48,866 nt of DNA from a virus: IMG/VR virus record IMGVR_UViG_3300049491_000970, positions 1 to 48,866 of that record. One strand, written 5' to 3'. Numbering within the stretch: the stretch's first letter is position 1; each line of letters starts with the position of its first letter. Below the pieces are notes generated by a model. That model saw only the letters and a list, made by a program, of their open reading frames with translations, was not told the DNA's origin and ran no database searches. Below, piece after piece: positions 8,742 to 43,096 of the stretch. The position numbers and the translations under genes were made by a program.

Positions 8742-9016
8742 AACCGCAGCAGCTGGACGTGATGCTGGAGATCCCGATGGCCGAGGCGAACCGGCTGGCG
8801 GCCCGTCGCGGCGAGATCGGCCCCGAGATCATCGACATGTCCCGCCAGCGGGCCGAGGAGCTGTGCCGCGAGGCCGGCGCGACGCTGCGCACCGACCGGG
8901 TGCCGGAGTTCGTGTTCAGCGAGGCTCAGTCCCCGCTGCTCGGCGACATGCTGTTGGTCGGTTCGCGGTGGTGGGCCGAGGTGCCCGAGGGTTTCCACCC
9001 CGTTGTCGGCCCCTGA
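8738..9016 (+). CDS. Small protein between terminase subunits
   Basis: This 92-residue protein starts at a GTG overlapping the TerS stop (GTGA) and ends within the start of TerL. It is mostly helical in the first half (MAEANRLAARRGEIG, MSRQRAEELCREAGATL) with a VPEFVF/SPLLGDMLLVGSRWW part after it. No family was recognised. Position suggests a packaging or head-assembly accessory, which is inference. Confidence 0.75.
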   Translation: MKPQQLDVMLEIPMAEANRLAARRGEIGPEIIDMSRQRAEELCREAGATLRTDRVPEFVFSEAQSPLLGDMLLVGSRWWAEVPEGFHPVVGP

Positions 9017-11801
9017 TGCCCACGTCGTCGACTTCCCGACGCTGTGGGTGGCCGCCGACTGGATCGAGAACCACTGCGTCGTCCCGGACCGTTTCGAGCG
9101 GGGCAACCCGTTCGTCCTGACCGAGTGGCAGCTGTGGCTGGTGGTCAACCACTACCGGGTCAAGCCCGACGCCCCGCTGCCCGACGCCTCCCGTCCCGCC
9201 ATCGGCGCTGCGGCGTTCCACTACCGCCGCTCGCAGGTTGTCTTACCTCAAAAATCGGGCAAAGGCCCCATAGCGGCAGCAATGGTGCTGCTAGAGGGCT
9301 GCGGCCCGACGATGTTCGCCGGCTGGTCCAGCGACAAGGAGGTCTACCGCTGCTCCGACCACGGTTGCCCGTGCGGCTGGCGTTACGAGTACCGCCCCGG
9401 CGAGCCGATGGCGATCCCGCGGCCGACGCCGCTGATCCAGCTGACCGCCTACTCCCAGGAGCAGGTGGACAACGTCTACGGCGCACTGCGCCCGATGGTC
9501 GACTACGGCCCGCTGTCCGAGGTGGTCCCGGTCACCGGTGAGGCGTTCACCCGGCTGCCCGGCAACGGCCGGATCGATGTCGTGACGAGCTCGCAGCGTT
9601 CCCGCCTCGGTCAGCGGGTCACTTTTGTGATCGAGGACGAAGTCGGTATCTGGTTGCCGCAGAACAAGATGGACGAGGTCGCCAAGACCCAGCGACGCGG
9701 CGTCGCCGGTATGGGCGGGCGCCTGGTCGAGCCACTCGCCCTGGACACTCCGGTGCCGACGCCGACCGGCTGGTCGACGGTCGGTGACCTCGACGTCGGT
9801 GACCTGGTCTTCGACAGCGCGGGCATAGCAACGCCGGTCAGCCGTCTCACTCCGGTCCAGCGTGGTGAGCCGTGCTATCGGGTGACCTTCGACGATGGCG
9901 AGCAGATCGTAGCCAGCGCGAGCCATGGGTGGACCGTCCGGCTTCGCAACCGCAAGAAGTTTGGCCTAGACAGTGAGATCACGCTCACCACCGAAGAGTT
10001 GGCCACTCGCCTTGGGCGCTACACGGCGTCCATGCCGATCGTGGCCCTGCGTGGCCTACCTGACATCGACTTCCTGGTGGATCCGTATTTCCTCGGTCTG
10101 TGGCTGGGCGATGGAGCTTCAGGCGATGCGGCAGTCTGCTGCGCCCACGATGTCGTCGACCAGATCGCAGACAACATCCGAGGCGCGCTGGAGGCACACG
10201 AAGACCTCGTCATCGACCTCAGTAAGCCGGCTGCGATCCTGAGGTCACGACTTCGACGCCGCCTCTGCCGCTACGGACATGACTGGGCCGACGACGAGAT
10301 GGGCAACGGCACCCTGCGTAGTGGGCGTCCATCAGTGACGTGCGGGGAGTGCCAGCGTCGCAAGAGCCGGGGAGAGCCCCGCGGAGCACCTCTGTCGACG
10401 ATGCGGGAGCGGCTTCGCGCGATCGGAGTATTGAACGACAAGCATGTTCCGCCTGAGTACCTGCGCGCCTCGACGGAGCAGCGACGGGCCCTCCTCCAGG
10501 GACTGATGGACAGTGACGGCTCCGTGGCCGAGAACGGGGTGGCGAGCTTCGTCAACACCAACCGCCGGTTGGCGGAGGCGACGCTGGAGATCGTGGTGTC
10601 GCTGGGGCACAAGGCGACCCTGAAGATCTACGACTACCCGCATCGTGGACTTCCCGCTTACACCGTGTCATTTCGCCCATTGCGCGACCAGCCGGCGGCG
10701 CGGCTCAAGCACAAGGTCGATCGTCACCGACCGGCCTTGGTCGATGAGCGGACGGGGCGACGCTTCATCCGATCGGTTGAGCCGATCGATTCGGTACCCG
10801 TTCGCTGCATCGGCATCGACACCGGGGACCACCTCTTTCTGGTAGGTCGTCACGCAACGCTCACGCACAACACCACCAACGCGTGGGACCCCTCGGAGAA
10901 CAGCGTCGCCCAGACCACGTACCAGGCGTCGCTGAAGGTGAACGACATCTTCCGGATCCACCCGTTGGCCCCGGCGGGGCTGTCGTTCACGAACAAGGCT
11001 GAACGGCGCCGGATCCTGCGCCACGTCTACGCCGGCAGCCCGTGGATCGACATCGACAACGAGATCGAGCCGGAGGCCGCCGAGCTGATCCAGCACGACC
11101 CGGGCAACGCCGAGCGTTTCTTCGGCAACCGGATCGTGGCCGGTCTGGGTGCCTGGATCGCGGAGAAGACCTGGGACGACGCCCGCGGCGACGTCCGGGT
11201 GGTCCAGCGCGGGACGCCGGTGGCCGCCGGCTTCGACGGTTCGGAGTCCGACGACTGGACGGCGATCACCCTGGAGACCCAGGACGGGTACTCGTTCCTG
11301 CCGACGTACGGCCCGGACCGGCGTCCGACGTACTGGGATCCGCGCGAGTGGGGCGGGGCGATCCCGCGCGGGGAGGTGGACGCCGCGGTGCACGAGATCG
11401 CCACGACGTACCGGCTGCGCCGGCTGTACGCCGACCCGCGGGACTGGCGCAGCGAGATCGGGGCGTGGGCGCTGGAGTTCGGTGACGAGGTGGTTTTCGA
11501 GTTCGACACCTATGTGATCTCTCGGATGTTCCCGGCGCTGTACCGGTTCCGCACCGACGTGATCGAGAAGCGGTGCCGCCACGACGGCCACCCGATCGTC
11601 AAGGACCACGTGCTGAACGCGCGGAAAGCGGCGAAGCCGGGGGACAAGTACCTGCTGGTCAAGCCGGACCGGGCCCGCAAGATCGACCTGGCGATGACGT
11701 CCGTCCTTGCCCACGAGGCCGCAGCGGATCTGCACACTGAGGCAGCATGGGGCGAGCCGTCGGCCGTGCGCTGGGCCGTCGGCAAGACTTGGGTGCGGTG
11801 A
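9003..11801 (+). CDS. terL: Terminase large subunit containing an intein
   Basis: This is the ATP-driven DNA packaging motor and nuclease. The 932-residue precursor holds an intein at 244-623, and removing it leaves 552 residues, a normal size. The motor part has a variant Walker A (PQKSGKG, about 82-88) and a Walker B (FVIEDE, about 207-212). The coupling motif is rebuilt by splicing, with VE joined to TTNAWDP. The nuclease part follows (GFDGSESDDW, LYADPRDWR, and a C-terminal KIDLAMTSVLAH). The start is read as TTG at 9003, overlapping the previous gene by 14 bases; a GTG 15 codons later is possible. Confidence 0.92.
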   Translation: MSAPDAHVVDFPTLWVAADWIENHCVVPDRFERGNPFVLTEWQLWLVVNHYRVKPDAPLPDASRPAIGAAAFHYRRSQVVLPQKSGKGPIAAAMVLLEGCGPTMFAGWSSDKEVYRCSDHGCPCGWRYEYRPGEPMAIPRPTPLIQLTAYSQEQVDNVYGALRPMVDYGPLSEVVPVTGEAFTRLPGNGRIDVVTSSQRSRLGQRVTFVIEDEVGIWLPQNKMDEVAKTQRRGVAGMGGRLVEPLALDTPVPTPTGWSTVGDLDVGDLVFDSAGIATPVSRLTPVQRGEPCYRVTFDDGEQIVASASHGWTVRLRNRKKFGLDSEITLTTEELATRLGRYTASMPIVALRGLPDIDFLVDPYFLGLWLGDGASGDAAVCCAHDVVDQIADNIRGALEAHEDLVIDLSKPAAILRSRLRRRLCRYGHDWADDEMGNGTLRSGRPSVTCGECQRRKSRGEPRGAPLSTMRERLRAIGVLNDKHVPPEYLRASTEQRRALLQGLMDSDGSVAENGVASFVNTNRRLAEATLEIVVSLGHKATLKIYDYPHRGLPAYTVSFRPLRDQPAARLKHKVDRHRPALVDERTGRRFIRSVEPIDSVPVRCIGIDTGDHLFLVGRHATLTHNTTNAWDPSENSVAQTTYQASLKVNDIFRIHPLAPAGLSFTNKAERRRILRHVYAGSPWIDIDNEIEPEAAELIQHDPGNAERFFGNRIVAGLGAWIAEKTWDDARGDVRVVQRGTPVAAGFDGSESDDWTAITLETQDGYSFLPTYGPDRRPTYWDPREWGGAIPRGEVDAAVHEIATTYRLRRLYADPRDWRSEIGAWALEFGDEVVFEFDTYVISRMFPALYRFRTDVIEKRCRHDGHPIVKDHVLNARKAAKPGDKYLLVKPDRARKIDLAMTSVLAHEAAADLHTEAAWGEPSAVRWAVGKTWVR
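9732..10871 (+). mobile_element. Class 3-type intein with LAGLIDADG endonuclease
   Basis: This 380-residue in-frame insertion begins PLALDTPVPTPTGW and ends in THN before Thr+1. Residue 1 is Pro, not Cys or Ser. The class 3 signature is present: Trp67 in block B (SHGWTV), Cys359 in block F (VRCIGID) and Thr378 before the terminal His379-Asn380. In that class the block F Cys replaces the first residue as nucleophile. Two LAGLIDADG motifs (FLGLWLGDG near 122; LLQGLMDSDG near 258) mark a homing endonuclease. Between them lies a Cys/His segment (CRYGHDW, CGEC) that may bind zinc. It sits in the conserved motif after Walker B. Confidence 0.88.
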
Positions 11802-42307: not shown

Positions 42308-43096
42308 ATGAACCCCTTCACCCTCCCGGCGTCCCTCGAGGCGGAGATGCTCGAGCACGCCGGGCACGGTCACCCGCACGAGGTGATGGGGTTCCTGGTC
42401 GGAGCGAGCGAGCGATGCAACGAGCCGTACCGGGCGGTCCGGATGGACAACATCGCGAACGATCCAGCCTGGTATTGCGAGCCGCCGGCCGAGCAGGTCG
42501 AGGCGATGTTCGCCGACCTGGACGACCGCAAGGAAGACCACCACGGGGTCTACCACTCCCACCCGGTGTCCCCGTCGGCGACGCCATCGGACAGGGACAT
42601 CGCGAACTGCGAGGACCTGGACACAGTGCATTTGATCGTCGCGCCGAACGCGACGCCAGCGGTGCGGGCCTGGCGGATCAGCGAGCACGAGAACGGCCGA
42701 CGCTCGGCGGTCGAGGTGCCGATCGTGCGGACCTCCAGCGCCGACCAGGTGATCACGATGCAGGCGCACCTGGTGGTCGACAACGTCGTGGCGATCTCCT
42801 ACCAGTCCCAGACCGGCGACATCCGCGAGCTCACTCGGGTCCGGGTCACCCGGCTGCAGACCGACTCCGTCGTTATCACCTACGAGCGACGCCAGGTCAC
42901 CATCGGTCTGGACCGGATCCGCTCGGTGCAGCTGATCGAGGAGGCGACGCTCGGCGCCCGGCGTCGCGCTTTCGCCGCCAAGCTGCTCCGCCAGGCCGCC
43001 GAGCTGATCGACGAGCACCGCATCGGCGACGGACGCTCGGCCATCGAAGCCGCCTGTCACGCCCTACCCGGCCTACGCCCCCGCATGGGCGAGTGA
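42308..43096 (+). CDS. JAMM metalloprotease with possible WYL-like domain
   Basis: This 262-residue protein has a JAMM/MPN core: PHEVMGFLVG (Glu25) and HSHPVSPSATPSDRD, giving His83, His85, Ser94 and Asp97, the zinc site of M67-type isopeptidases. The spacing from the second His to Ser is one residue longer than usual. Residues 130-220 form a beta-rich part (VVAISYQSQTGDIRELTRVR; RQVTIGLDRIRSVQL) that resembles the WYL fold. No NlpC/P60 domain is fused, unlike tail-tip enzymes, and it lies far from the tail genes. It may remove ubiquitin-like tags. Confidence 0.8.
   Translation: MNPFTLPASLEAEMLEHAGHGHPHEVMGFLVGASERCNEPYRAVRMDNIANDPAWYCEPPAEQVEAMFADLDDRKEDHHGVYHSHPVSPSATPSDRDIANCEDLDTVHLIVAPNATPAVRAWRISEHENGRRSAVEVPIVRTSSADQVITMQAHLVVDNVVAISYQSQTGDIRELTRVRVTRLQTDSVVITYERRQVTIGLDRIRSVQLIEEATLGARRRAFAAKLLRQAAELIDEHRIGDGRSAIEAACHALPGLRPRMGE

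What the first reader, a model, noticed from the sequence alone, without database searches (positions are those of the whole stretch)
9732..10871. Class 3 intein in terminase with homing endonuclease
The insert starts with Pro, so standard class 1 chemistry cannot work. Instead Trp67, Cys359 and Thr378 match the WCT set of class 3 inteins, where a block F Cys starts splicing. It also keeps two LAGLIDADG motifs plus a Cys/His insertion, so it may still be mobile. It interrupts a motif that the motor needs, so packaging would depend on splicing.
Basis: partly seen in the sequence, partly recalled or inferred. Interest (0 to 1): 0.75.

Follow-up and report, generated by a model that had tools for sequence, protein, structure and literature searches.

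The report
Class 3 intein in phage terminase
A self-removing protein segment (an intein of the known class 3 type, still carrying a DNA-cutting homing domain) sits inside the DNA-packaging motor of an actinobacterial-type phage; it is a genuine new member of a known kind at a new position in the gene, and a close relative without it has an unusually recoded version of exactly that position.

Summary
An intein-free sibling phage (L006, 94% identical TerL) shows the exact empty site, RLLE|STNAW. WCT, block-B His and terminal Asn are conserved in all 15 phage relatives checked; a 57-sequence profile hits solved class 3 DnaB inteins (E ~1e-46) for the splicing part and PI-SceI for the endonuclease part. 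So it is a class 3 intein; Pro1 and the Cys/His module recur in relatives. What is new is modest: it occupies the ATPase coupling motif (0 of 138 related terminases carry one there). Its nearest relatives form a clade at another terminase site ('c') with a similar downstream target, which suggests a site jump. The published C-motif terminase intein (Chandler) is class 1. One unexpected result: in the intein-free sibling all nine codons around the site are changed, seven silently, the densest silent change in the shared 4.2 kb; this may be a homing-resistant allele or a conversion scar. Splicing and cleavage are inferred, not tested.

The parts
9003..9731 (+). TerL N-extein (ATPase domain, 243 aa, TTG start)
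   Evidence: sibling L006 94% identical; relatives in Arthrobacter/Gordonia/Streptomyces phages; PHROG terminase large subunit for the L006 homologue
9246..9269 (+). Walker A region PQKSGKGP (class 3 intein site in relatives L227, L229, L237)
   Evidence: motif assignment by alignment and established knowledge
9624..9641 (+). Walker B region FVIEDE (class 3 intein site in L227, L229, L237, L023, JonJames)
9717..9731 (+). upstream half of insertion site, codons 239-243 (GRLVE); all five codons differ in intein-free sibling L006
9732..10871 (+). class 3 intein, 380 aa, Pro1 to Asn380
9924..9932 (+). block B His65-Gly66-Trp67 (W of WCT, B:12)
   Evidence: conserved in 15/15 phage relatives and all of A4
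10089..10115 (+). LAGLIDADG motif 1, FLGLWLGDG (res. 120-128)
10266..10352 (+). Cys/His module C179-x2-GH183 ... C204-x2-C207, candidate zinc-binding part of the endonuclease
   Evidence: same kind of module in 27 of 80 IMG/VR class 3 inteins; low model confidence in part of this stretch
10491..10520 (+). LAGLIDADG motif 2, LLQGLMDSDG (res. 254-263)
   Evidence: Pfam LAGLIDADG_3 1.8e-5; invariant G257, D262, G263
10806..10808 (+). Cys359, block F:4, predicted first nucleophile
   Evidence: invariant
10863..10871 (+). Thr378-His379-Asn380, block G (T of WCT, penultimate His, terminal Asn)
   Evidence: T378 and N380 invariant; H379 is Arg only in YungMoney
10872..11801 (+). TerL C-extein starting with +1 Thr and the C (coupling) motif TTNAWDP; nuclease domain
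   Evidence: +1 Thr in 79 of 80 empty-site relatives; Pfam TerL_nuclease weak

Best explanation
The insert is a full-length class 3 intein with a LAGLIDADG homing endonuclease, inserted in the ATPase coupling (C) motif of the terminase large subunit. Predicted steps, by analogy with studied class 3 inteins: Cys359 attacks the Glu(-1)-Pro1 peptide bond with help from His65/Trp67/Thr378, giving a block-F thioester; Thr+1 takes over the N-extein; Asn380 cyclises with help from His379; the ester shifts to a normal peptide bond, restoring GRLVE-TTNAW and an active motor. The endonuclease would cut intein-free terL at this site and so copy the intein in. Its closest kin sit at another terminase site ('c'), so it probably reached the C motif by jumping to a similar target. 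Shown here: boundaries, residues, relatives, predicted fold, empty site, phylogeny. Inferred: splicing, cleavage, direction of the jump.
For: Exact ends and residues; exact empty site in sibling L006 and in 80/80 related TerLs; W, C, T and block-B His in 15/15 phage inteins, and W, C, T, both His and Asn invariant in 57 aligned inteins; profile matches 6rix/6bs8/6riy class 3 DnaB inteins at 1e-46 and PI-SceI at 1e-18; AlphaFold2 model pLDDT 92.7 matching PI-SceI as a whole and class 3 mini-inteins for the splicing part. Pro1 also in Petp2012, Anglerfish, SOVA965. Kelley et al. (PMC5050341): the terminase inteins tested splice; the TerL1-c intein (Bethlehem gp10) splices and cleaves intein-free TerL. 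Clade with site-c inteins, bootstrap/SH-aLRT 100/99, site-c sub-clade 98/97; downstream target similarity, L023 12/15 nt.
Against: No direct splicing or cleavage data. The catalytic geometry could not be measured (model coordinates not available). The endonuclease could be inactive without visible motif damage. L006's site differs at 12 of 27 nt from the window's, so that allele may not be a substrate. The jump could have gone from C to c.
Confidence: 0.93

Rival explanations
1. Class 3 splicing intein whose endonuclease is dead (it splices, but is no longer mobile).
For: Only the window, of 139 related TerLs, has an intein at this site, which fits either a recent arrival or a stranded element; the sibling site is strongly changed.
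Against: Both LAGLIDADG motifs, their acidic residues (D127, D262) and Lys237 are intact and the frame is open; dead endonucleases in relatives are visibly eroded or deleted (L227 Walker A intein 133 aa, L237 Walker B intein 132 aa).
Confidence: 0.3
2. Class 1-like or class 2 intein with an altered first residue.
For: Pro1 alone would be compatible with a change away from class 1 chemistry.
Against: Complete WCT and grouping with class 3 inteins; no Cys/Ser at -1 in the empty sites.
Confidence: 0.02
3. Non-splicing in-frame insertion or endonuclease domain that TerL tolerates.
For: The frame is open throughout.
Against: All splicing residues are conserved; the insertion splits a nearly invariant E|TTN motif, which TerL would hardly tolerate unspliced.
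Confidence: 0.03

Closest known systems
TerL1-c type class 3 inteins of Fromanvirus mycobacteriophages (Petp2012, Violet, Anglerfish here; Bethlehem gp10 in Kelley et al. 2016, PMC5050341)
   Same: Class 3, Pro1, WCT, two LAGLIDADG motifs, terminase host, +1 Thr; same clade (100/99); 43-44% identical
   Different: Inserted at site c (SQDQ|TKNTF) upstream of Walker B, not at the C motif; no Cys/His module in Petp2012/Anglerfish. That Petp2012's site is Kelley's 'c' is my reading; Bethlehem's record was not found in the collection.
TerL6-f intein of mycobacteriophage Chandler gp6 (C-motif insertion, PMC5050341)
   Same: Terminase C-motif region insertion, spliced in the published assay
   Different: Class 1 by sequence (starts Cys, ends SHN|T), another TerL family, no significant similarity to the window intein
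Mycobacterial DnaB class 3 inteins (MchDnaB1 6rix/6riy, M. smegmatis 6bs8)
   Same: Splicing-domain profile match about 1e-46; His65 and Trp67 carry the same numbers in MchDnaB1
   Different: Mini-inteins without endonuclease; host is DnaB
PI-SceI
   Same: Whole-length fold match, LAGLIDADG endonuclease in a Hint domain
   Different: Class 1, yeast VMA1, 15-16% identity

Membership tests
Class 3 intein | No Cys/Ser nucleophile at position 1 | tested here: met
   Pro1; boundary fixed by the empty site in L006
Class 3 intein | WCT triplet at B:12, F:4, G:5 | tested here: met
   W67, C359, T378; aligned and invariant; definition from PMC5050341
Class 3 intein | Block F Cys is the initiating nucleophile (block F branched intermediate) | not testable with these tools
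   needs C359A and intermediate trapping
Class 3 intein | Hint fold like class 3 structures | tested here: met
   profile about 1e-46 to 6rix/6bs8; Foldseek probability 1.00 to 6riy, 6rix, 6bs8
Class 3 intein | Penultimate His, terminal Asn, Cys/Ser/Thr at +1 | tested here: met
   H379, N380, Thr+1
LAGLIDADG homing endonuclease intein | Two LAGLIDADG motifs with acidic ends between blocks B and F | tested here: met
LAGLIDADG homing endonuclease intein | Site-specific cleavage of the intein-free allele | not testable with these tools
   bench assay needed
TerL1-c intein allele family | Shared descent with site-c terminase inteins | tested here: met
   8-member clade 100/99
TerL1-c intein allele family | Same insertion site (site c) | tested here: not met
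   inserted at 243|244 (C motif), while site c is 154|155 in this TerL; so kin of that family, not an allele of it
TerL6-f intein | Class 1 intein at the C motif of TerL6 | tested here: not met

The most novel reading that the evidence does not exclude
Phage terminases in this lineage evade homing endonucleases by silently recoding intein target sites: the intein-free sibling has changed all nine codons around the C-motif site (seven silently), and the same allele pair shows dense changes at the Walker A and Walker B points where related terminases carry other class 3 inteins.
Probability: 0.3. Interest if true: 0.6.

Novelty: new member of a known kind. Interest (0 to 1): 0.35.

Why it matters
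It confirms a correctly read class 3 intein in a phage group with no near GenBank relative and adds an insertion site (C motif of a TerL1-like terminase) that the published mycobacteriophage survey does not list for class 3. The intein-bearing and intein-free sibling pair, with a recoded site, makes a concrete test possible of whether phages escape homing by silent changes, and the relation to site-c inteins gives a testable case of an intein moving to a new site through a similar half-target.

Tried and rejected
PF14890 (Intein_splicing) search of the record found nothing, a sensitivity limit of that model, since profile and fold comparisons are strong. Megablast of 20 kb of the window against GenBank phages: no match. 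Scan of bacterial genomes with the intein: one distant hit only. Idea that Pro1 or the Cys/His module is unusual: rejected, since both recur. Idea that a class 3 intein at the C motif was already known: Chandler checked and found class 1. Idea that motif codons generally diverge fast in TerL: rejected by 157 control pairs. Idea that recoding is usual at class 3 terminase sites: Petp2012/HanShotFirst and Anglerfish/HanShotFirst show none. The Bethlehem record and Tori and Perler 2011 were not held. The careful 101-row tree did not finish; a 30-row careful tree was used as well.

Full report
1. The observation. The TerL frame runs 9003-11801 (+). The best proof of the boundaries is L006 (IMGVR_UViG_3300049917_000275), a 4.2 kb contig of a sibling phage: its TerL is 552 aa, aligns without any gap to the window's TerL with the insert left out (94% identical residues), and reads GMGGRLLESTNAWDPSENS across the site. 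None of 80 related IMG/VR terminases has anything at this point; -1 is Glu in 80/80 and +1 Thr in 79/80 (Ser in L006).

2. What it is. tblastn found 744 GenBank phage records with relatives of the insert, in terminases, Cas4/RecB-like exonucleases and DnaB. Fifteen were extracted and aligned: His65, Trp67, Cys359, Thr378 and Asn380 are identical in 15/15; the penultimate His is Arg in YungMoney only. In a second set of 57 (window plus IMG/VR) these columns are invariant. A profile from that set matches the solved class 3 inteins 6rix, 6bs8 and 6riy at about 1e-46 and PI-SceI at about 1e-18. An AlphaFold2 model (57 rows, mean pLDDT 92.7) matches PI-SceI over its length and the class 3 mini-inteins over the splicing part. 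Kelley et al. define class 3 by a missing A1 nucleophile and WCT at B12, F4, G5 (PMC5050341). These features are met. Splicing itself was not tested.

3. Features that looked special but are not. Pro1 occurs in Petp2012, Anglerfish and SOVA965 and in a minority of the 80 IMG/VR inteins. The Cys/His insertion, CxxGH...CxxC, occurs in 27 of those 80; it is probably a zinc-binding DNA-contact module of the endonuclease (inference).

4. Where it sits. The joint E243|T244 is the start of TTNAWDP, aligned with the C (coupling) motif. The most similar published case by place, TerL6-f of Chandler, was fetched: its intein starts with Cys, ends SHN|T and has no significant similarity to ours, so it is class 1 by sequence. 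Kelley's class 3 terminase inteins are at other sites. Of 138 other related TerLs spanning the site none carries an insert here.

5. Where it came from. In a 30-row tree the window's intein and seven inteins at terminase site c form a clade (ultrafast bootstrap 100, SH-aLRT 99), with the site-c inteins a sub-clade (98/97) (same in a quick 101-row tree). Site-c C-exteins begin T-x-N-[TV]-[WYFM]; the C motif begins T-T-N-A-W. At DNA level the first 15 downstream bases of site c agree with the window's site at 8-12 positions; for L023 at 12, reached by 0.04% of registered 15-mers in that locus. The simplest story is a jump between two sites in TerL through a similar downstream half-target. The direction is not fixed by the tree. 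The window's own site c reads QEQ|VDNVY, with Val at +1, so it could not serve a splicing intein there.

6. An unexpected result at the empty site. Between window and L006 (8.9% nt divergence) all nine codons 239-247 around the junction differ, seven silently, plus V/L and T/S; flanking codons are identical. This is the most divergent 27-nt window of 545 in the gene, the longest run of changed codons, and the densest silent change in all shared genes. In L006 the codons are AT-ending (GC3 0.44 against 0.90 for the gene), in the window GC3 is 1.0 there. Two more clusters lie at Walker A (codons 77-99) and Walker B (201-218). These turned out to be places where related terminases carry class 3 inteins: L227/L229 have three in one ORF (Walker A, site c, Walker B), L237 two, L023 two. 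With junction-centred windows the window/L006 pair is above all 157 control pairs at Walker A and C, above all but two at Walker B, and not raised at site c; random triplets of positions in the gene reach the observed sum with p about 0.0006, or 0.005 if site c is included. The Walker clusters were first seen in this pair, before the L227 junctions were known; the C window was set beforehand. Control pairs are not independent of one another. Explanations: silent recoding that hides the target from a homing endonuclease; short conversion tracts left by past intein gain and loss (L227 shares AGA, GAA and a TCN Ser with L006 at the C site); or chance in one pair. Against resistance: mycobacteriophage pairs with site c show no recoding, and Kelley reports cleavage of a partner site only 75% identical (PMC5050341), whereas ours is 70% over 40 nt (12 of 40 changed). 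I put the resistance reading at about 0.3.

7. Verdict. It is a new member of a known kind at a new site, with a side result on site recoding that deserves a bench test.

Noticed in passing
window 9717-9731 and 10872-10883 vs L006 (TerL codons 239-247): All nine codons around the intein joint differ in the intein-free sibling, seven silently; densest silent change in the shared 4.2 kb.
   Followed up: yes
window 9231-9299 and 9603-9656 vs L006: Further clusters of mostly silent changes at Walker A and Walker B, with low GC3 in both siblings; these are class 3 intein sites in related terminases.
   Followed up: partly
L227, L229 (TerL ORF): One terminase ORF with three class 3 inteins (Walker A mini-intein 133 aa ending TGN; site c 343 aa; Walker B 341 aa).
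   Followed up: partly
L237, L023 (TerL ORFs): Terminases with two class 3 inteins each; the L237 Walker A endonuclease looks eroded, the L237 and L023 Walker B ones are mini-inteins.
   Followed up: partly
L016 (Acidovorax phage ACF1) 460-1512, L019 (Mycobacterium phage Dietrick) 1498-2490: Inteins with full WCT that also have Cys or Ser at position 1, so two candidate first nucleophiles.
   Followed up: no
window 9873-9875 (intein Cys48): A Cys in 'CYRV' of the splicing domain is invariant in the 57-row IMG/VR set though not part of WCT; Petp2012 lacks it.
   Followed up: no
L004 and other Arthrobacter/Gordonia phages: The nearest GenBank terminases are split into separate ATPase and nuclease ORFs, while the window's TerL is one ORF.
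   Followed up: no
window 42308-43096: ORF with a Prok-JAB domain (Pfam 2.8e-15), role not examined.
   Followed up: no
L008 (Gordonia phage YungMoney) 1498-2478: Class 3 intein with Arg instead of the penultimate His (TRN|S).
   Followed up: no
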